Notes under the pieces: generated by a model
Told to the model about the DNA's origin: nothing
What the model saw: only the letters and a program-made list of their open reading frames with translations
The model's database searches: none
Assembly: GCF_007655485.1 (NCBI RefSeq)
Contig: NZ_VJXQ01000007.1
Location: 20,706-79,261, forward strand
Direction: 5' to 3'
DNA from: Halobellus captivus
GTDB lineage: Archaea; Halobacteriota; Halobacteria; Halobacteriales; Haloferacaceae
DNA: 58,556 bases
Program-made: the position numbers and the translations under genes
Shown: positions 31,301 to 55,100 of the stretch, piece after piece
Numbering within the stretch: the stretch's first letter is position 1
Layout of the letters: the number at the start of each line of letters is the position of its first letter

Positions 31301-31729
31301 TTACGCCGGCTCAGCGACCAGCTCTTCGAGCGCGTGCTCAAGCGGGCCGTTGAATTGCCAGCTAGCCCGCTCGAATGCCTCGTCGGTCGGTCCATCCCAG
31401 CGTGGGAACGCAGAGTGACCACTCACCTTGACGGTCCACTCGGACAGCTCCTCGAACGGATTCCGTGTCGGGAGTTCGACGACATAGAGGTACTCCTCGT
31501 CGCCGTGAATGCCGTTTGCTGGGTTCTCGACGCCGTGACCGAGCAGGAACAGCGGCTGATCAAGATGCTCCATATTGTCCGGCTCGAGGAGATCCGAGGG
31601 TTGGTCGGCGTGGATGCTCCGGTTACGCCCTTCGTCCACGTAGAGGGTCATCGTCGAGAGCGTGTCGAGGAACAGGAACGGGACAGCAGCGTACGCAGAC
31701 CCGCGCTCTGTTCGCGTCTCATCGAGCAA
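31301..31729 (-). CDS. Haloarchaeal protein of unknown function, true 5' end unclear
   Basis: A 142-aa frame from a TTG at 31729, ending 13 bp from the convergent Mrr gene. Coding character continues upstream in the same frame for about 34 residues (YEPSEGNWIAQNYRHSDDD, then TASVLRELEQLKQL) to a stop near 31840, but that extension has no ATG, GTG or TTG start. The thiDN stop and an ATG overlap at 31821-31824 (ATGA), yet that ATG is in another frame. So either a 1-nt error or mutation lies near 31822, or translation starts at an unusual codon. No family recognised. Confidence 0.65.
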   Translation of the reverse strand: MLDETRTERGSAYAAVPFLFLDTLSTMTLYVDEGRNRSIHADQPSDLLEPDNMEHLDQPLFLLGHGVENPANGIHGDEEYLYVVELPTRNPFEELSEWTVKVSGHSAFPRWDGPTDEAFERASWQFNGPLEHALEELVAEPA

Positions 31730-31820: not shown

Positions 31821-33182
31821 TCATAACTCCTCAGCTATCGAGAGTGCACGGGCCGCAAGATCGGCGGCGTCGCTTGCAAGCATGCGCGTGATCGGTTCCT
31901 TGCCAACGTCACCTCGGTCGAAGACGACCGCCGGCGTGGTTTCGACCTGCTCGAAGGCTCGCTCGGCCGCCCAGCCCATGGTCGAGCCTTCCTCGTCAGG
32001 TTCCGGTTCGTTTGAGCGGTCGATCTCGACAACTGGGGCATCAATCTTCTCCAGGGCTGCCTCGATGGAATCGTCGAACCGGAGGTTCGCGGCGAACCGG
32101 ATGTCGGGGTCGTGCTCCCGCGCCGACAGCAGGAAGCGGGCGACGTGGCTCGAGGCGCCGAAGCGTGTTCCCCGCGTCACGCGGATTCCGGTCATCGTCC
32201 GGGCGATCCGTCCCTCGACGGCGACGGTCTCCTCCGGCCGTTCTGCGTAGGGCGTGGCCCCGACCACGTTCATCCCAACCTCCGGAACGATCGACGACAC
32301 GCCAGCAGAGACCAGCTGCTCCACGACGGACTCGACAGCTTCCTGAGTGGGCTGTCTGGCTGACCGATCCCGGATATTCGCGAGGTGGTGGACCGGTCCT
32401 GGTCCCTCGCCGACGTCGAGCGGGTATCTGATGGCGCGGGTCATGAATGCCACGCCGGATTCGATCGCCTCCGGGATGTCATCGCCGTGAGCCAGTCGTG
32501 CCGCGATCGCACTCGAAAGTGTACATCCCGAACCGTGTGTCCCGTCCGAGTCTACTCTCGAGTGCTCAAGTGTGGTTACGTCGTCCCGAGTCACGATGAC
32601 ATCTCGAACGACATGCTCATCGCCGACATGGCCACCTTTCACAAGTGCTGTGTCGGCTCCCATCTCCACGAGTCTCTGCCCCGCAGCCTGCATCGAGTCC
32701 GGATCCTCGATCGGGATATCTGTGAGTATTTCAGCTTCGTCAGCGTTTGGCGTCACGACCGTCGACTCAGCGATCAACCCCTCGTAGGCGGCTGCAGCGT
32801 CATGATCGAGCAATTGGTCGCCCGAGGCGGCGACCATAACCGGATCGACGACGAAGGGCACGTCCATGTCAGCAGCGTACGACGCAACCCTCTCTACGAC
32901 GGGTTCAACACCCAACATGCCTGTCTTGACGGCCTGTAAATCGAAATCGGTACGGATAGCCTCGACCTGGGCCTCGATTGCCTCGACCGGGACGGGATGG
33001 ATCGACTCCACGCCAACGGTGTTCTGTGCCGTGAGGCTCGTGATTGCACTCGTCGCGAAGGTGTCGAGTGCCTCCATCGTCTTGAGGTCCGCTTGGATGC
33101 CGGCGCCACCGCCCGAGTCACTCCCGGCGATCGTCATGACCTGGGGGAGCTCAACCGGGGCTGGCCCTCGTACTGTGGGCAT
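31821..33182 (-). CDS. thiDN: ThiD-ThiN fusion: HMP kinase / HMP-P kinase and thiamine-phosphate synthase
   Basis: A 453-aa bifunctional enzyme. ThiD part (about 12-265): MTIAGSDSGGGAGIQADLKT without the last residue is the substrate-binding start, with DPVMVA, VVTPNADEAE, VKGGH and GTHGSGCTLSSAIA. ThiN part (about 285-450): VPEVGMNVVGATPYA, GRI, GASSHVARFLL and MGWAAE. ThiD phosphorylates hydroxymethylpyrimidine twice; ThiN joins HMP-PP and thiazole phosphate in archaea that lack ThiE. I use the ATG at 33182. Next to thiR and salvage/transport genes, so this plasmid copy serves pyrimidine salvage. Confidence 0.93.
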   Translation of the reverse strand: MPTVRGPAPVELPQVMTIAGSDSGGGAGIQADLKTMEALDTFATSAITSLTAQNTVGVESIHPVPVEAIEAQVEAIRTDFDLQAVKTGMLGVEPVVERVASYAADMDVPFVVDPVMVAASGDQLLDHDAAAAYEGLIAESTVVTPNADEAEILTDIPIEDPDSMQAAGQRLVEMGADTALVKGGHVGDEHVVRDVIVTRDDVTTLEHSRVDSDGTHGSGCTLSSAIAARLAHGDDIPEAIESGVAFMTRAIRYPLDVGEGPGPVHHLANIRDRSARQPTQEAVESVVEQLVSAGVSSIVPEVGMNVVGATPYAERPEETVAVEGRIARTMTGIRVTRGTRFGASSHVARFLLSAREHDPDIRFAANLRFDDSIEAALEKIDAPVVEIDRSNEPEPDEEGSTMGWAAERAFEQVETTPAVVFDRGDVGKEPITRMLASDAADLAARALSIAEEL

Positions 33183-33229
33183 ATCAGTGATATAACCGAC
33201 GAGTACAAATCGGTAATGGTCGAGCCGCG

Positions 33230-34159
33230 TCACTCGGCTTCCTGGACCGTCTCGAGGAGCGAGACCGCGAGGCGAGCGGCGTCTTCCGCGGTCTCCCCGA
33301 GGACGTAGGTAATGGGTTCGATCCCGAATGCGCCGCTGTGGTAGATGACTCGCGGAACGACATCCCGAGACGCGAACCGATCCAGGAGTCGCTGGTTCCG
33401 GTCATCGTACTCGGCGTCGAACTCCATCGGGTCGAGCCCCCGGGCCCGAGCGGTCGAGAGGAGCGCATCGTCGGTTGCGATGTTGACCGCACCACGTAGC
33501 CCGTCGTCCTGGGCCATCGCAGCTAGCACGACCGTCGCGACGTGTCGCGATGCCCCGAATTCCGGGTTTGCTGGGATTTCGACGCGACCGTCGACCGCAT
33601 AGATCCGCCCGGGAATCGCTGCAACCTCGGAAACGTCGTTCGCACCGGGGAGCGCAGATCCGACGTTCGTCCCGACGTTGGGGACGTATGTCGCCATCCC
33701 GGGTGCTGTCGCAAGGATGCGTGCCGCCGTCCGGACGTCCGTCAACGTCTCCCGTTCTGCGGCGAGGCGCTCGTCGGTGCCACGGACACAGAGGTCACAG
33801 CCGAGACCGGCGAGCGAGGGCATCGCCTCCTCGTGCAGTTCACACACCGGGCCACGGTCTTCAAACGCCCGAACGAGCGCGAGCAGTTCGTCGAGCGCCT
33901 CGTACCCATCCATGTGTCCGGAGGCGAACCCCTCGGCGATACGCGTAACCGTCTCGGCGGTCAGCGGATGGTCTTCGATGCGTTCTTCGACTGCCACGTC
34001 GCCGCTGATGTACTTCGAGACGGCGGCCTGGGAGACGCCGATATGTTCCGCCACCTCTTGCTGAGTCATCCCACGATTAGCCAGTTCCCCGGCAAGACAG
34101 ACACGGATGGTGGGGAGGACCCGCTCAACGACGATCTCGCTCGGGAGGTGGAGTGACAT
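33230..34159 (-). CDS. thiR: ThiR: HTH regulator with ThiN-like ligand domain
   Basis: A 309-aa protein. HTH at about 10-60 (RGMTQQEVAEHIGVSQAAVS), a short Cys motif (CELHEE...CDLC), then a ThiN-type domain (about 130-305): VPNVGTNVGSALPGAND, GRIYAVDGRVEIP, GASRHVATVVLAAM and GIEPITYVLG. Archaeal ThiR proteins of this architecture bind thiamine phosphate through the ThiN domain and control thiamine genes. I use the ATG at 34159, as the extension to 34444 runs through the promoter region of the divergent permease. Its ThiN half is a paralogue of the one in thiDN next door. Confidence 0.92.
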   Translation of the reverse strand: MSLHLPSEIVVERVLPTIRVCLAGELANRGMTQQEVAEHIGVSQAAVSKYISGDVAVEERIEDHPLTAETVTRIAEGFASGHMDGYEALDELLALVRAFEDRGPVCELHEEAMPSLAGLGCDLCVRGTDERLAAERETLTDVRTAARILATAPGMATYVPNVGTNVGSALPGANDVSEVAAIPGRIYAVDGRVEIPANPEFGASRHVATVVLAAMAQDDGLRGAVNIATDDALLSTARARGLDPMEFDAEYDDRNQRLLDRFASRDVVPRVIYHSGAFGIEPITYVLGETAEDAARLAVSLLETVQEAE

Positions 34160-34325
34160 ACGGATAGGATCAGTTGCCCCACAATAAATCGTGCCCACCG
34201 GTGAACGAAGTCCGTATCTCATCGAAACCGTACGCATCGAGTGACACAGGCCTAACCGGGCCAGGCCGACTCCTCGGCGTCCGCATCGGGGTACTTTTTT
34301 ACCCAACCCAATATTCTCTGGTAGT

Positions 34326-35639
34326 ATGACTAGCGAATACTCACTTGAGGTCGGGACAGTCCGCGAGTATTTCGGCGCGATGGGGCCCTCCTGGGTCGCG
34401 GGGGCAATCGCCGCCGGTCCAGCGACGATGGCGAGTCTAATCACCGCGGGGGCGATCTTCGACTATCAACTCCTCTGGGTTGTCGTGCTCTCTGCCGTCG
34501 CTGGCACCCTAGCACAGTACCTCGCGATGCGGCTGGGGCTGCTTACTGAGCGGGGAATTGTCGGCGTCGTCGAGGACCATCTTGGAGAGACCTGGGCGTG
34601 GATCCTGGTCGCGGACGTCGTCATCGCGGCCGGTGTCGCCCAGCTCGTCATCATGAAGACGGTCGCTTCCGTTTCGGCGACGATCACTGGGATTGACCCA
34701 CGCCTCTGGGGCATTGCCTGGGGCGGCATCCTCGTTTTGGGTCTGGCCGGTCAGGGATACCGATTCGTCGAGCTCTTCGCGAAGCTGCTAGTCACCGCGG
34801 TCGTCCTGGCCTTCGTTGCCTCACTATTCGTCGTCTCGATCGACATCGGCCAGGCTACCCAGGGGTTGATACCGACGCTGCCCGGCGGCAGCGCACTGGT
34901 CGCTGCAGGCATCCTCGGGGGCGCGGTCCACATCACGCTTATCACCATGCACTCCTACACGATGCGAGCCCGGGGCTGGACGGAACGTGACTATGACCTC
35001 GCGACGGTGGATGTACTCGCGTCGATGCTCGTCGCGTTTGGCATCTACAGCATCGCCATCTTCCTTGTCACAGCGAGTACTCTGACCGATCCGGATCTGA
35101 CGACCGTCGGTGCAGCCCAAGCCCTCGGACCTCTGGTCGGCCCGGCCGCCAAGTGGCTGTTCCTGCTCGGTCTCGGCGCCGCTGCCGTCTCGACGCTCGG
35201 TGGCAACACCATCGTTCCGCCGTTCCTCGTTGCCGACAAACTTGGCTGGGGCACGACCGTCGAGGATACGCGGTACCGGGTGCTCCTCGCACTCTTTGCT
35301 GTGTTATCGGTGCCGGGTGCGTTCATCGGCGGTGAGGTTATCGGCCAGCTCGTCCTCGTTCTGGCTCTTGGCACGGTTGGCACGCCCTTCGCCATCGCCG
35401 TCGTCCTCTATCTGTTGAACGCTGAGAGTGTCGGCGCCTCGAACTCAACGCTCGCGAACCTCGGCGGGCTTGCCTTACTCGCCGTTTCGGGCGGCCTTGC
35501 GGCCAACTTCGTCAGGGAACAGATCGCGACCGGCCTCGATCTGCTTTCCGGACTCGTACTCATATTCGCGCTCGTTCTCGCTGCCGCGACGCTCGTCCTC
35601 TTTGGACAGTACGTCCGCGAGGAGGTGCCTCTAGCGTGA
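34326..35639 (+). CDS. Nramp-fold permease lacking the metal-binding motifs
   Basis: A 437-aa transporter with about eleven TM helices and an Nramp/SLC11 pattern (AGAIAAGPATMASLITAGA, TLAQYLAMRLGLLTERGIV, GQGYRFVELFAKLL). In Nramp metal carriers TM1 has DPGN and TM6 has MPH. Here TM1 reads AGPATMAS and TM6 reads VHITLITMHSY, so the metal ligands are missing. It starts divergently from thiR (166 bp) and leads the thiamine-locus operon, so the likely cargo is a thiamine precursor or a metal other than Mn/Fe (inference). Confidence 0.8.
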   Translation: MTSEYSLEVGTVREYFGAMGPSWVAGAIAAGPATMASLITAGAIFDYQLLWVVVLSAVAGTLAQYLAMRLGLLTERGIVGVVEDHLGETWAWILVADVVIAAGVAQLVIMKTVASVSATITGIDPRLWGIAWGGILVLGLAGQGYRFVELFAKLLVTAVVLAFVASLFVVSIDIGQATQGLIPTLPGGSALVAAGILGGAVHITLITMHSYTMRARGWTERDYDLATVDVLASMLVAFGIYSIAIFLVTASTLTDPDLTTVGAAQALGPLVGPAAKWLFLLGLGAAAVSTLGGNTIVPPFLVADKLGWGTTVEDTRYRVLLALFAVLSVPGAFIGGEVIGQLVLVLALGTVGTPFAIAVVLYLLNAESVGASNSTLANLGGLALLAVSGGLAANFVREQIATGLDLLSGLVLIFALVLAAATLVLFGQYVREEVPLA

Positions 35640-36187
35640 CTGGGCTTCCGTTCCCGTTGACCGGCTCGACGCTGATCGTCGGGCCGTCCCAGGCCGGAAA
35701 GACTCGTCTCACGGCCCGCGCCCTCGAGGCCTGGGTTGGACGGCATGGTACTGATGGGGTCGTGGTTCTGGAGTTCGCACCCGAACTAGAACGCGACGGC
35801 CAGATCCTTGGCGGTCGCTTGGACCGGTTCACTACTATTCCTGACGGTGTCTGGCACGGCGTCCTCGACGCGCATGCCCCCCGGGCGGAAGGGGCCGACG
35901 AGGCAGAATCGGCGACACTTGCGAAGGACAACGCCACCCGTGGTATCGAGGTTCTGGACACTGCCCCGGATCCAACCGCTGTCTTCGTCAACGACGCGAC
36001 CATCCCGCTCCAGCACACGTTCGTCGAGGTGGATACGCTCACAGGCTACTGCGACCGTGCGACATGTGCTGTTCTCAACGCGTTCGATTCCGACGAGCTT
36101 GGAACGGACGACCCGGTGTCACGTCAGGAACGGGCAGCACTGTCGGAACTCCGTTCTTGGGCGAATCGGACGATCGAACTGGACTGA
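35636..36187 (+). CDS. P-loop NTPase in the thiamine locus
   Basis: A 183-aa protein with Walker A GPSQAGKT at about residues 15-22 and a plausible Walker B (GVVVLEFAPELE). The GTG start overlaps the stop of the permease gene by 4 bp (GTGA), so the two are coupled. The ATP/GTP-binding fold is clear; the role is not. Such a small ATPase coupled to a secondary transporter may regulate it or handle the imported compound. I do not recognise a named family. Confidence 0.75.
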   Translation: MTGLPFPLTGSTLIVGPSQAGKTRLTARALEAWVGRHGTDGVVVLEFAPELERDGQILGGRLDRFTTIPDGVWHGVLDAHAPRAEGADEAESATLAKDNATRGIEVLDTAPDPTAVFVNDATIPLQHTFVEVDTLTGYCDRATCAVLNAFDSDELGTDDPVSRQERAALSELRSWANRTIELD

Positions 36188-36330
36188 CCGTCGGAACCGA
36201 AGCGGATCTATTGCATCGGTTCGATAGTGAAATCGCCGTCAACTACAGGTTTGGAGCCATTGACAACGTTCGAGATATAACTAACTAATATAGGCAAGTT
36301 ATATCCTCTCTCGGACGGTACGGCTCGCTA

Positions 36331-36990
36331 GTGCCATTCAGCGATACCCTTCTTGAGGCGGGACAGGATGTATGGGCGGCCCAGAAGGAGCACCCCTTCG
36401 TCCGCGAACTCGCGACCGGAACTCTCGACGAGGCGGCGTTCGAGCACTGGATCAAACAGGATTACCGCTACCTCCTGGACTACGCTCGGTTGTTCGCGAT
36501 TGCGGGCACGAAGGCCACCAACGAGAAGACGATGACGCACTTACTCGGCGTGGCCCACCAAGTGCTCGACCACGAAATGGATCTTCACCGTGGCTTAGCG
36601 GCCGATTACGGAATTTCCGACGGCGAGCTCGAAGCAGTCGAGAAGGCGCCCACATGCGTGGCCTACACAAATTTTTTGATCCGAACGGCGTACGAGGGCT
36701 CGATTGCGGAGATCGCGGCCGCACTGTACCCGTGCATGCAGGGCTACCTCGACGTCGGAGAGCATATGGCGTCGCTCGCCACCGACAAACACCGGTACAC
36801 ACCCTTCATCGAGATGTACACCAGTGACGAGTTCCGTGACGCGACAAGCTGGTGTCGCGACTTCGTTGACCGATGTGGCGAACAGTCTCCCGGTGAACAC
36901 GACGCTATGAGGGAGGCGTTTCTAACTAGCGCGAAGCTCGAGTATCGGTTCTGGGAGATGGCCTACACGCAAGAAGGGTGGGGTCTATGA
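36331..36990 (+). CDS. tenA: TenA family aminopyrimidine aminohydrolase, Cys type (TenA_C)
   Basis: A 219-aa protein. The active-site Cys is in ALYPCMQGYLDVG, with the conserved DYRYLLDYARL and EYRFWEMAY segments. TenA hydrolyses aminopyrimidine breakdown products of thiamine to HMP, feeding ThiD. GTG start at 36331, placed by family homology (FSDTLLEAGQDVWAAQKEHPFV). A TATA-like run (ATATAACTAACTAATATAGG) lies about 40-60 bp upstream. Translationally coupled to the second TenA gene. Confidence 0.92.
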   Translation: MPFSDTLLEAGQDVWAAQKEHPFVRELATGTLDEAAFEHWIKQDYRYLLDYARLFAIAGTKATNEKTMTHLLGVAHQVLDHEMDLHRGLAADYGISDGELEAVEKAPTCVAYTNFLIRTAYEGSIAEIAAALYPCMQGYLDVGEHMASLATDKHRYTPFIEMYTSDEFRDATSWCRDFVDRCGEQSPGEHDAMREAFLTSAKLEYRFWEMAYTQEGWGL

Positions 36991-37724
36991 CGGACGTCCC
37001 CGATAGCTACGACGACTACCGGGCCACCGTCAGCGACCCCCGGTTCACTGACTGGCTGCGGGAGCGTGCCGAACCCGACTGGACGAACGCCGTCGATCAT
37101 CGGTTCACCCGTGAGATCGGTAGTGGCGCGCTCTCCGAGACGGTCTTCGCCGACTACCTCATCCAGGACTATGCGTTCGTGGACGTCCTCGTGAGTACGT
37201 TCGGCTTCGCAGTGGCCCAAGCACCCGATGTCTCAGCGAAGCGTGCGCACGTCAAATTTCTCGACACCCTGACTGACGAGGAAAACGATTACTTCGAGCG
37301 TTCCTTCGACGCGCTCGGCGTCGACGACGCCCGGTGGGACCAGCCAGAACTGTCCACGACCACAGCCGCGTTCGTCGACTTTCTCGGTCGTACTGCCCGC
37401 GAGGGCGGCTACGCCGAAACACTCGCAGCCATTGTTCCAGCCGAGTGGATCTACGCCGAGTGGGCGACACGCGAAGCTTCAATCCACGAAGCGACGGCCG
37501 GACTTCCGTTCTACTTCGCCGACTGGATAGAGCTGCACGCAAACCCCTCTTTCGAGGAGTTCGTGACCTGGCTCCGTTGCCAGTTGGACGCTTATGGCCC
37601 GACGGTCTCTCCTGGACGGGAACGGGAGATCGAGCGAATCTTCTGCCGGACCGTCGACCTCGAAGTTGCTTTCTTTGACGACGCCTACGCGGCCGTTGAG
37701 ACCGACGGGGAGGGTAGACAGTAA
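36987..37724 (+). CDS. TenA-like protein of the non-Cys (TenA_E) type
   Basis: A 245-aa TenA paralogue. The position of the catalytic Cys is Ala (IVPAEWIYAEWATREAS), and the adjacent Glu residues match the TenA_E subgroup, which acts on a formylamino precursor upstream of TenA_C in thiamine salvage. It overlaps the first tenA by 4 bp (ATGA at 36987); the earlier GTG at 36978 is less likely. Having TenA_E and TenA_C side by side gives both steps of aminopyrimidine salvage in one operon. Confidence 0.88.
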   Translation: MTDVPDSYDDYRATVSDPRFTDWLRERAEPDWTNAVDHRFTREIGSGALSETVFADYLIQDYAFVDVLVSTFGFAVAQAPDVSAKRAHVKFLDTLTDEENDYFERSFDALGVDDARWDQPELSTTTAAFVDFLGRTAREGGYAETLAAIVPAEWIYAEWATREASIHEATAGLPFYFADWIELHANPSFEEFVTWLRCQLDAYGPTVSPGREREIERIFCRTVDLEVAFFDDAYAAVETDGEGRQ

Positions 37725-39244
37725 TGGTTTCAACAGCTGTCGCACTCACCGCTGTCGTGCTCACAGTACTGACCGTTACCGCTTTCGGCCTATTAGCGGC
37801 TCGCGGCCGGGTTCGATCCGTCGAGGATTATATTTCCGCCCGCGACTCAGCCGGTCCTGGAACCCTCACCGCTACGATCATCGCGTCGATGATGGGCGTC
37901 TGGATACTGTTCAGCCCTGCCGAGGCCGGGGCTGCCTTCGGCGGGCTCCCGGCCATCCTCGGATACGCAATCGGGAGTGCGGTTCCGCTCCTCCTGTTCA
38001 TTCCAGTTGGCACACGCATCCGTGCCATTGTTCCGGCCGGCCACTCACTCACCGAATTCGCGTACGCTCGCTTCGGGACCGGAATGTACCTGTTCGTGCT
38101 CGTCGTGTCCGTGTTCTACATGTTCATCTTCCTCGCGGCCGAGATGACGGGGATTGCCGGCGCCCTCTCACTCGTCATCGGGATCCCCCAGTGGCAGACG
38201 GCCCTGCTCGTAGGCGGATTCGTCTTGATATACACGGCTTACGGGGGACTCGTGGCGAGCATCGTCACCGATACCGTCCAGACGCTCGTCCTGCTCCCGC
38301 TGCTCGCCCTCGGTTTCGGTGGCGCCGTGCTCGCGTTGGGCGGAACCGGTGAAATACACGCTGCAGCGATCGCCACGGACGCGCCATTGCTGGATCCGAC
38401 GTTCGGTCCCGGGCTAAAGTTCGGCGTGTACGTTGCCTTCGCCATCCTCGGTGCGAATATGCTGAACCAGGGGATGTGGCAGCGCGTCTACGCTGCCAAC
38501 GGCGAATCGTCGCTTCGGTGGGGATTCGGCGTCGCGGCCGTCGTAGTCGTTCCAATGATTCTGCTAGCCGGCTTGTTCGGTATCGCTGCGGCCGCTCTCG
38601 GCCTGACCGACTCCGGCGGTGCCAGTATCGCGTTCTTCCTCGTCCTCGAGTCAGCCTTCCCGAGTTGGGTAACGCTCGCGGTCGTCGTCCTCGCGGTCCT
38701 GCTCGTGATGAGTTCCGCGGACACGATGTTCAATGCCATCGCGAGCGTCGTCACCGCCGATCTCGCGCGGCTGCTCGACCAGCCAACCCAGCGGTCGTTG
38801 TGGGTGGGTGGACGCGCCCTCACCGGGATCGTCGGGATCGGCGCGATTGTCATCGGTTCGCAAGGGTATAGCGTGCTTGAACTGTTCCTGACGGCAGACC
38901 TGCTCGCGGCTGGAATTTTTGTCCCGTTTCTCGCCGGCCTGTATTCCGAGCGGCTTTCAGGAGCTGGGGCTATTGTCTCGAGTCTGGGTGGGCTTGTGGT
39001 CGGTGTCGCCTACTTCCCGCTCCTGCGTGGACCGGTCGCGTCGATTCCGAGGCTTGGCCCGCTGCTGCCCGCACCCGAGTTTCTACCCGCTTTTGTCGGG
39101 GCGACTGTCGTGTCAACCGGCGGGACGATTCTCGCTATTGCCCTCTGGGACGCCGACGTCGACCTCTCCAGCGTGGATCGTGATATCCGGAGCTTGGATG
39201 AACCGGTCGCCGATGGGGGTCCGAACGGGGGGGAAAACCAATGA
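37724..39244 (+). CDS. Sodium:solute symporter (SSS), probable thiamine-precursor importer (ThiV-like)
   Basis: A 506-aa SSS/SLC5 family transporter with about 13 TM helices; the RVRSVEDYISARDSAGPG start, GGLPAILGYAIGSAVP and YTAYGGLVASIVTDTVQT segments are typical. It begins 1 bp into the stop of the TenA_E gene and overlaps the 47-aa gene after it by 4 bp. SSS proteins clustered with tenA and under thiamine control have been predicted as HMP or thiamine-precursor carriers (ThiV); applying that name here rests on context. Confidence 0.88.
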   Translation: MVSTAVALTAVVLTVLTVTAFGLLAARGRVRSVEDYISARDSAGPGTLTATIIASMMGVWILFSPAEAGAAFGGLPAILGYAIGSAVPLLLFIPVGTRIRAIVPAGHSLTEFAYARFGTGMYLFVLVVSVFYMFIFLAAEMTGIAGALSLVIGIPQWQTALLVGGFVLIYTAYGGLVASIVTDTVQTLVLLPLLALGFGGAVLALGGTGEIHAAAIATDAPLLDPTFGPGLKFGVYVAFAILGANMLNQGMWQRVYAANGESSLRWGFGVAAVVVVPMILLAGLFGIAAAALGLTDSGGASIAFFLVLESAFPSWVTLAVVVLAVLLVMSSADTMFNAIASVVTADLARLLDQPTQRSLWVGGRALTGIVGIGAIVIGSQGYSVLELFLTADLLAAGIFVPFLAGLYSERLSGAGAIVSSLGGLVVGVAYFPLLRGPVASIPRLGPLLPAPEFLPAFVGATVVSTGGTILAIALWDADVDLSSVDRDIRSLDEPVADGGPNGGENQ

Positions 39245-52176: not shown

Positions 52177-52195
52177 GCCGTATTTCCTCACTAGA

Positions 52196-55100
52196 TTATA
52201 ATTTCAGATGGTGCTCCCGGATTTCTTCAATTTTGGTTTCATCTATTCCGTCGTGCTCCTCAAGGGTAGCAAGCTTCTTTTTGGTGGTCTGGTGGAGCTG
52301 GTTCTGCGAGTTCTGTTTCAACATTCCTTCGATACGAGTTAGGACCAGATCCTCCTGCCCGGCGAGGTCGTCGAATGCGGCAAGTTGGCCCACGATGTCC
52401 TGTTTCTGTTGCCATCCGACGTTTCCATCTGTCAGTTTATCACTCAGCCGTTGAATGAACTCTTCGTGTGCGTTTGTAGCGAGGTCGTCGGTCACCGATT
52501 GGAGAACTTTGACCAAGTTATCAGTCGGAACCTGTTGATTCTGGTCACTCACTTCGTCTTCCAGAATGGAGAGTACGTTTTGACCCACCTTGCGACGATG
52601 ATTAGACGTTAGGTTTGATTTGACTTCATTCCATACACGGTAGAACGCTTGCTTGTCCTTATTGTTCCCACGCGCAAGGTCGGTTAGCCGACTGAGGAAC
52701 AGTTCCTGATCACTGTCGGTAAGGTCAGTAAACACTTCGGCAACAGCAGTCAGATAGATCTGTTTACTGCTCGTGTCGTTTGTCTTGTTTACTTTTTTAA
52801 GACATGTACTGACTACCTTGTCTTGAACACTCTCGAATCGCTTTGGTGCGGTGGAAAACATCTCTGCACCAAGCTGTGCACGAGAGTCATCGTTGTTGTC
52901 CAAGATCTCAATCAACTTCGGCGAGGTCAGTTCTTCGTCGAACTCCTTAGGTATCAGCGTTAAGACTGTGTTGGTGAGGAGCCCCGTGTTCGTATTCTGG
53001 TCCGGGAACGGGTCCAGTGCTGCCGTCACTGCGTCTTCTGAATCAAGCAGGGGCACATCGTATTGTTGAGCCCACTTCAGATACTGCTGTCCGGTTCCAC
53101 CCCAGTTCTGAATCTGCTTCATACATTCCTGACGGAATCGGTTCTGGTCACTCGACGAGAGAGTGTCATAGTGATAGAAGAGCGTCTCAACCAGATTCTT
53201 CTCATTATTACTCGGGGCATTCACCATCCCGTGGAATTCGTTGTAGAGATGACTCGCAGTTAGACGTGGTAGGTCAGATTCGATCTTGAGGAGGATATTC
53301 GAAATACTGTCGTTGATATGGTTGATATTGTTATCTTCAACTTCGTTCCGGAGATCAAACAATTTTTCGATGAACGTACCTCGGGCCTCAGTAGATGCAT
53401 CCGAGTCGAACTTCTGGTAGTAGTCCTCGTTCTCAAACTGACGTTCGTTATTACCCAACTCAATCAGCTTGATGGCCTCCGTCAGCAGCTTCGTGGTGGC
53501 GAATTTGTCCCGTGCGGCTGCCGAACTGTGAATTTTGTCGAGCGCCGTTTTGAACACGTCTTCCTGCTGGTTCTCACGTAGCTGAACAAGACTCTCGGTC
53601 AGGGGTCGTTTCGCAGACTCCGGAATTCCTTCGGCGTGTTTAACGAACGCATCAAGGATATTCTCCTGAAGGGTTTCTGAATCAGCGACCAGTTCACCAT
53701 ATGCCCCAAAGAGCACACGCGAGTCACGTGGTTGCATTTTGAGTATCATCGGGAACGAGATGCTGGGATCCAAATCTTCCAAGAAGTGCCGCCTGTCTAC
53801 GGAGACCAGGTACTCACTTACCATTCGGGATACCTGAGTCTGGGCGTCGTCATCCAGAGCATCGAATACCTCCATCAACCCCTCGATGATGTTGAAGAGC
53901 TCGGAATCAAGATGACTCCACTCGTCAAGCGTATCGTCAATTGCCTCGCGGTATGGCCCGAAGTCACCCTCGTCTTCAAATAGGGCATCCAGTTCGTCGC
54001 GAACCTTATCGACCTGTCGCGCACGTAGATCTTCGACGAAGCGGTCACCGTCTTCAAGTGTTAGCGTGTACGGTGGCTCGCTCAGATAGATGAATCGGCG
54101 TGGGTTATTGTCTGTGATATACCGTGTAGATGACAGAAACTCTCGAAGCCCCTCCACGGACTTTCCGTTCCCGTCTTGTGTTGGCTCGAAATGTGATGCC
54201 AGTTCTTCCTCTCGTTCCGGGTCCATCACACGACCGGCGAAGTAGTCATTGAACTCCTCAAGTAGACGTGGGTTCGCTTGTAGGGACCGATAGAACTCTG
54301 GAAAGTCCTCCTGCAGTATTGAGATCTTCGCCAAGAACGGGAGGTTGCCGGTAATCACTCCTTCACGCATTCGTTGAGTGTCCTCTATTTCCTCGGCCAA
54401 CATCCGTAGCGTCGTCAGACGGTTGAGTGCCTGTTTTATACGGCGCGGGTTTCGGACGTATGCTTTCGTGATGACCGAGAGAACCTCCTCATCGTAACTG
54501 TCCTTGAGTTGATCGTTTAGTTCAGCAGCATAATCGGAGATAGCGTCACTGGTGAACGGCGGAATACGGACGTGGGCTTGGAAGAGTTTCCGTAGGAACT
54601 CCCGCTCATTTTCGTTCTCTTCGAAGTATTCCCCTCGGTCGATAGACTGGATGTGGCTGAGAAGCGCCTCATCGTCGCAGGGAATAATATAGAGGCAGCG
54701 GTCGTTGCCCATGAACGTCTTGAGTGAGACCAGGACATCGTAGACGGTGTCGCTCTCGCACCGGTCCAGATTGTCGACGGAGATGATGATCTGTTCGTAC
54801 TCTGTCTTTTCCATCAGCTCGTCCAGCATTTCGTCGAAAAGCTGCTCATACGCACCGGACCAATCATTACGTGGATACCGCTGACGAAGGGTCGATGTCG
54901 CGTCCTCGACCTGCTTCGCCATGAAGATGAAAAGACTGAGGAACAGAGGCAAGATCGCAATCTGGAGGATGCTATTAGCTGTCCCCATTAGATCCTGGCC
55001 CGGAGTGAAGATACCGAAAGCGTTCAGGGCATTGATGACTACCCCTGTTATCAGGATTACTGCGGTTATCGCGACAATCGCCGTTACGAACTTCGATTGG

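What the first reader, a model, noticed from the sequence alone, without database searches (positions are those of the whole stretch)
34326..35639. Nramp-fold permease without DPGN/MPH in a thiamine locus
The protein keeps the Nramp scaffold but has AGPATMAS for DPGN in TM1 and HITLITMHSY for the MPH region in TM6, so Mn/Fe transport is unlikely. It is divergent from thiR and coupled to a P-loop protein, next to TenA and ThiD-ThiN. A thiamine, HMP or thiazole carrier of the Nramp fold would be new.
Basis: partly seen in the sequence, partly recalled or inferred. Interest (0 to 1): 0.7.

Follow-up and report, generated by a model that had tools for sequence, protein, structure and literature searches.

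The report
Nramp-like permease in vitamin-B1 regulon
A haloarchaeal protein built like a manganese/iron transporter, but with the metal-binding residues gone, is controlled by the same DNA switch as the vitamin B1 genes, so it most likely carries thiamine or one of its building blocks instead of a metal.

Summary
ORF 34326-35639(+) is an Nramp-fold protein (Pfam Nramp 235 bits; AF2 model matches DraNramp at Z 42). The DPGN and MPH metal motifs and the TM3 acids are replaced in all 37 aligned homologues. It diverges from thiR, overlaps a P-loop gene by 4 bp and sits beside thiDN, two tenA genes and a ThiV-like symporter.

Two new results support a thiamine role. (1) A motif trained only on thiC/thi4 promoters recurs upstream of the homologues: 10 of 20 in a phylum-wide sample against 0 of 7 haloarchaeal Nramp-related controls, including loci without thi neighbours. 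(2) The P-loop family was found only directly downstream of this permease (10 of 10 hits, 295 genomes); its fold resembles CobA/CobU and thymidine kinases.

The host genome lacks ThiC, Thi4, ThiM and TPK, so it must import vitamers. I conclude: a ThiR-regulated importer of thiamine or a precursor (0.7); substrate not fixed. An organic substrate for an Nramp-related protein has a precedent (PxpT/YcsG, 5-oxoproline), though a rival paper reports Mn2+ import. New variant of a known kind. The main ThiR regulon paper could not be read here and may already list this gene.

The parts
34326..35639 (+). Nramp-related permease, 437 aa; DPGN->GPAT, MPH->HIT, TM3 acids lost
34316..34337 (.). ThiR-box-like palindrome CTCTGGTAGTATGACTAGCGAA overlapping the permease start codon (score 11.9 with a motif trained on thiC/thi4 promoters)
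35636..36187 (+). P-loop (GPSQAGKT) RecA-fold protein, 183 aa, overlaps the permease stop by 4 bp; found only beside this permease
36278..36301 (.). ThiR-box-like palindrome upstream of tenA1 (score 16.6 on +, 15.3 on -)
36331..36990 (+). TenA1, thiaminase II (TIGR04306 166.6 bits, above cut-off 130)
36978..37724 (+). TenA2, divergent TenA paralogue (80.7 bits, below the TIGR04306 cut-off)
37724..39244 (+). Sodium:solute symporter of SSF family, ThiV-like by context
33230..34159 (-). ThiR: HTH + ThiN regulator, divergent from the permease
31821..33233 (-). ThiD-ThiN: HMP(-P) kinase / thiamine-phosphate synthase

Best explanation
The gene encodes an Nramp-fold (LeuT-like) secondary importer that brings thiamine or a thiamine building block (thiamine first, HMP/aminopyrimidine second, hydroxyethylthiazole third) into the cell. 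It is repressed through a palindromic box shared with thiC, thi4, tenA and thiB, so it is made when TPP is scarce. The TM1/TM6 break that holds a metal in Nramps is rebuilt with G31-P-A-T34 and G199..H202-I-T204 and is proposed to hold the organic substrate. The linked P-loop protein is proposed to act on the incoming substrate, probably by phosphorylating it. Shown: fold (by model), residue loss, gene linkage, shared promoter motif, exclusive P-loop linkage, missing biosynthesis genes. Inferred: that ThiR binds the box, direction of transport, substrate, kinase activity.
For: The metal and proton residues are lost and fixed in 37 homologues. The model has the Nramp fold (Z 42 to 6d91, 2.5 A over 377 residues). 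A motif trained only on 36 thiC/thi4 upstreams scores >=15 upstream of 17/55 homologue loci against a shuffle mean of 0.08, and >=12 in 10/20 orthologues from a phylum-wide sample against 0/7 Nramp-related controls. It is enriched against other ORFs of the same loci (Fisher p 7e-15, related sequences). The same motif marks tenA in about 14 genomes and the genome's own thiB, so it behaves as a thiamine-regulon mark. A thi gene lies within 6 kb in 7/20 phylum-sampled loci and in many genera with different gene orders, including Halobaculum and Haloferax larsenii plasmids. The host lacks ThiC, Thi4, ThiM and TPK but keeps ThiL, so it depends on imported vitamers. Because ThiC and Thi4 are absent, no metal supply for them is needed.
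Against: No transport assay exists. About half of the homologues lack a clear box and most lack a thi neighbour. The box at the window gene itself is modest (11.9). The host also has a ThiB importer and a ThiV-like symporter, so the permease is not the only candidate. The related protein YcsG was reported as a Mn2+ importer despite belonging to a group outside the canonical Nramps (PMC10448178, PMC12873925).
Confidence: 0.7

Rival explanations
1. It is still a divalent-metal importer (Mg2+, Mn2+ or Fe2+) that supplies metal to thiamine or TPP enzymes, with an altered site as in NRMT or as claimed for YcsG/MntG.
For: All characterised Nramp-related proteins with in vitro data move divalent metals (EleNRMT, PMC8806188); YcsG overexpression raised cell Mn (PMC10448178). 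H202 is an invariant possible ligand at the M230 position.
Against: TM1 Asp, TM1 Asn, TM6 Met, TM6 His and both TM3 acids are absent; NRMTs keep the TM1 Asp (DxxG) and this family does not. Haloarchaea live in high Mg2+. The host has no ThiC or Thi4 to feed with iron.
Confidence: 0.15
2. A more specific form of the best explanation (not exclusive of it): the pair (permease + P-loop protein) is a transport-coupled phosphorylation system. The permease imports thiamine or hydroxyethylthiazole and the P-loop protein is its kinase, replacing the missing TPK/ThiK or ThiM.
For: The P-loop family occurs only directly downstream of the permease (10/10 hits, none elsewhere in 295 genomes). Its fold is closest to CobA/CobU and type II thymidine kinases (Z about 12). 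TPK is absent in 13/13 genomes and ThiM is below cut-off in the host.
Against: Fold similarity at Z 12 also covers Rho, KaiC and RecA; many permeases (Haloferax, Halorubrum salinum) lack the P-loop gene. Haloarcula mostly lack thiM and have the P-loop gene, but a Natrinema with it breaks a simple anticorrelation with thiM (PMC12029414).
Confidence: 0.25
3. The permease carries an unrelated small molecule, for example an amino-acid derivative as PxpT does, and its place in thiamine loci reflects plasmid gene packing.
For: Many copies are on plasmids next to unrelated genes; PxpT/YcsG shows that Nramp-related proteins can serve amino-acid-like substrates (PMC13274462).
Against: Recurring adjacency to tenA/thiR in different gene orders and the shared box upstream of copies without thi neighbours.
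Confidence: 0.1

Closest known systems
Canonical Nramp/MntH (SLC11), e.g. Deinococcus radiodurans DraNramp
   Same: LeuT-like fold, 20-24% identity, Z 42 over 377 residues
   Different: No DPGN, no MPH, no TM3 Asp/Glu; below all curated Nramp cut-offs
NRMT, Nramp-related Mg2+ transporter (EleNRMT)
   Same: Nramp-related, non-canonical site, same fold (Z 38)
   Different: NRMT signature is DxxG-TxxA/T (PMC8806188); here GxxT and GxxH
PxpT / YcsG (MntG), Nramp-related protein of the 5-oxoprolinase operon
   Same: Nramp-related permease beside a catabolic or salvage operon and a divergent regulator; required for an organic substrate (PMC13274462); YcsG model is close in fold (Z 36)
   Different: pxpABC linkage and 5-oxoproline there; thiamine genes and ThiR box here. 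Sequence relation to YcsG not measured here. YcsG is also reported as a Mn2+ importer (PMC10448178)
ThiV sodium:solute symporter (HMP) and ThiBPQ (thiamine ABC)
   Same: Thiamine-regulon importers; an SSF symporter and a ThiB-like protein occur in this genome
   Different: Different transporter families; ThiV is SSF, not Nramp (PMC11452348)
CobU / type II thymidine kinase (for the P-loop partner)
   Same: RecA-like P-loop fold, Z about 12 over 115-145 residues
   Different: 11-18% identity; no family assignment; activity unknown

Membership tests
Pfam Nramp superfamily (PF01566) | Score above curated cut-off | tested here: met
   235.3 vs 29.8 bits
Pfam Nramp superfamily (PF01566) | Nramp/LeuT fold | tested here: met
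   AF2 pLDDT 78; best matches DraNramp, EleNRMT, human NRAMP1, Z 36-42
Canonical Nramp/MntH | TM1 DPGN metal motif | tested here: not met
   GPAT/GPAS in 37/37
Canonical Nramp/MntH | TM6 MPH metal motif | tested here: not met
   H-I/V-T in 37/37
Canonical Nramp/MntH | TM3 acidic proton-path residues | tested here: not met
   D131->A, E134->V/L
Canonical Nramp/MntH | NCBIfam curated cut-offs | tested here: not met
   92/430, 57/272.5, 35/50 bits
NRMT Mg2+ transporters | DxxG-TxxA/T signature | tested here: not met
   G31xxT34 and G199xxH202 (signature from PMC8806188)
PxpT/YcsG 5-oxoproline carriers | Linkage to pxpABC | tested here: not met
   Not annotated in the eight plasmid neighbourhoods viewed closely; not seen beside the window gene
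PxpT/YcsG 5-oxoproline carriers | Close sequence similarity to YcsG | not tested
   YcsG sequence was not compared; only the fold match to 9a52
Haloarchaeal ThiR regulon | Promoter palindrome shared with thiC/thi4 | tested here: met
   10/20 phylum-sampled orthologues >=12 vs 0/7 controls; window gene itself 11.9
Haloarchaeal ThiR regulon | Binding by ThiR / thiamine-dependent expression | not testable with these tools
   Needs EMSA or expression data
CobU / type II TK-like kinases (P-loop partner) | Shared fold | tested here: inconclusive
   Z 12 to CobA, CobU and TK1, but RecA-like Rho and KaiC within about 1 Z

The most novel reading that the evidence does not exclude
An Nramp-fold carrier turned vitamin importer, working with a dedicated kinase that traps imported thiamine (or its thiazole) by phosphorylation, fills the missing thiamine/thiazole kinase step of haloarchaea that lack TPK and ThiM.
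Probability: 0.2. Interest if true: 0.8.

Novelty: new variant of a known kind. Interest (0 to 1): 0.57.

Why it matters
Databases call these genes 'divalent metal cation transporter', and the Nramp field treats most Nramp-related groups as uncharacterised and probably metal-moving (PMC12873925, PMC13060092). A thiamine-vitamer carrier of this fold would be a clear case of an Nramp scaffold moving from an ion to an organic molecule, after the contested PxpT/YcsG case. It would also name a missing step in haloarchaeal vitamin B1 salvage. It is directly testable in genetically tractable Haloferax species that carry the gene.

Tried and rejected
A TPP riboswitch as regulator: no Rfam match in 31-40 kb. 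Identity of the P-loop protein by sequence: only weak generic AAA matches and no significant PDB relative. Aminopyrimidine as the general substrate: three genomes with the permease (G004, G007, G008) have no TenA. Sole thiamine importer: the host has ThiB under a ThiR box. The controls were first picked as canonical Nramps but proved to be GPGT-type Nramp-related proteins; they remain valid as non-thiamine controls. The degenerate box pattern with 2 mismatches was uninformative (45 hits vs 37 for the reversed pattern), so a weight matrix was used. The key ThiR papers (10.1128/JB.00743-16, PMC5350279) were not held.

Full report
OBSERVATION. The ORF 34326-35639(+) is real, 437 aa, open throughout. 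It matches Pfam Nramp at 235 bits but stays far below the curated NCBIfam Nramp/MntH cut-offs. Alignment to DraNramp puts G31-P-A-T34 on DPGN and H202-I-T204 on MPH; the TM3 acids are A105 and V108. In 37 homologues these replacements are fixed or nearly so. The AF2 model (pLDDT 78) has the Nramp fold: best matches DraNramp (Z 42.1, 2.5 A, 377 residues), EleNRMT (Z 38), human NRAMP1 (Z 37).

LOCUS. ThiR (HTH + ThiN, ATG at 34159) and ThiD-ThiN run leftwards; permease, P-loop gene (4-bp overlap), TenA1, TenA2 and an SSF symporter run rightwards with overlapping or closely spaced genes. SSF symporters called ThiV carry HMP in SAR11 (PMC11452348); that this one does is inferred from context. The genome has a second permease + P-loop + TenA set with a ThiN-domain gene nearby (C1).

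HOMOLOGUES. A genome scan gave 44 haloarchaeal loci, most at 66-80% identity. In 295 genomes of the phylum the clear orthologues score above 570 bits and the next matches fall to 123 bits or less; no orthologue was seen outside the window's order. The family is thus distinct and patchy in haloarchaea. In 20 phylum-sampled orthologous loci a TenA, ThiR or ThiDN gene lies within 6 kb in 7. With about two thi clusters per 3.5-Mb genome, chance would give about 1% per locus (my estimate). Gene order differs between genera: TenA upstream (Haladaptatus, Halobacterium), downstream (window), or on the other strand (Halobaculum roseum).

REGULATION. A 22-bp matrix trained only on thiC and thi4 upstream regions has consensus ACCTAGTGGTATCACTAAGTGG, 23.6 bits. 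It found strong sites upstream of many permease genes, including Haloferax, Halosimplex and Natronomonas copies that have no thi neighbour within the locus or only at its edge. Phylum sample: 10/20 at >=12, usually the best site of the whole 13-kb locus; 0/7 for haloarchaeal Nramp-related controls. Against other ORFs of the same loci the enrichment is about 8-fold at >=12 (26/63 vs 44/828); related sequences inflate the p-value. Independent validation: the matrix also marks tenA in about 14 genomes, and the best exact-pattern hit of the whole host genome lies just upstream of its only ThiB. In the window the boxes are at 34316-34337 (modest, over the start codon) and 36278-36301 (upstream of tenA1). 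That ThiR binds them is inferred; ThiR as the archaeal thiamine regulator is taken from my own knowledge of the field, as the two key papers were not readable here.

METABOLIC NEED. The host genome has no ThiC, no Thi4 (only weak FAD-domain hits), no ThiM above cut-off and no TPK, but has ThiL and ThiB. It must import vitamers (the assembly is 99% complete, so a missed gene is possible but unlikely). As it lacks both metal-dependent synthases, a metal-supply role for them is not needed. Three genomes with the permease have no TenA, which argues against aminopyrimidine as the only substrate. A same-genus genome with the permease (G120) has no ThiB above cut-off, consistent with, not proof of, thiamine transport.

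P-LOOP PARTNER. The 183-aa protein (invariant GPSxxGKT and VNDxxI-type motifs) was found in 295 genomes only directly downstream of the permease (10/10 hits at E <= 1e-10). Its model (pLDDT 91) is RecA-like, with CobA, CobU and type II thymidine kinases at Z about 12 and Rho/KaiC within about 1 Z. A kinase that traps the substrate is attractive because TPK and ThiM are missing, but remains inference.

KNOWN CONTEXT. Canonical Nramps need DPGN and MPH; Nramp-related groups are paraphyletic, lack these motifs, and are mostly uncharacterised (PMC12873925). EleNRMT moves Mg2+ (DxxG-TxxA/T; PMC8806188). PxpT/YcsG is the key precedent: deletion and complementation show that it is needed for 5-oxoproline use in C. 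glutamicum (PMC13274462), while PMC10448178 reports YcsG as a Mn2+ importer. So an organic substrate on this scaffold is not wholly new; a vitamin B1 role would be.

VERDICT. Most likely a ThiR-regulated importer of thiamine or a precursor on an Nramp-related scaffold, with a dedicated P-loop partner. Substrate and mechanism need experiment.

Noticed in passing
G000:C1:195969-200097 (L001): Second permease + P-loop + TenA set, with a ThiN-domain gene nearby, in the same genome, 74% identical permease, with a ThiR-box-like site (17.7) upstream.
   Followed up: partly
G000:C15:49925-51061 (L163): ThiB-like thiamine-binding protein gene with the best ThiR-box pattern match of the genome just upstream.
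   Followed up: partly
G000 whole genome: Predicted thiamine auxotroph: no ThiC, Thi4, ThiM or TPK found; ThiL, ThiDN, TenA and ThiB present.
   Followed up: partly
L191-L197: Haloarchaeal Nramp-like proteins of the ordinary annotated kind also lack DPGN (GPGT in TM1, VGY in TM6) but keep the TM3 Glu; their usual annotation as metal transporters is doubtful.
   Followed up: partly
L034:10471-11715: A second, very divergent Nramp-like protein (25% identity, TM1 SYFGSGSVFIASS) lies next to the permease/P-loop pair in Halobacterium sp. CBA1126.
   Followed up: no
36978-37724: TenA2 is a divergent TenA paralogue, below the thiaminase II cut-off, kept in tandem with TenA1 in many haloarchaea; its role is unclear.
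   Followed up: no
2395-2416 and 52188-52209: Two more ThiR-box-like matches (16.0, 17.9), near an Orc1/Cdc6-like gene and a large P-loop NTPase gene; probably chance, and a measure of the false-positive rate.
   Followed up: partly
31301-31729: 142-aa hypothetical next to ThiDN, no Pfam or NCBIfam match; among the fetched loci seen only in the near-identical Halorubrum sp. CSM-61 genome.
   Followed up: no
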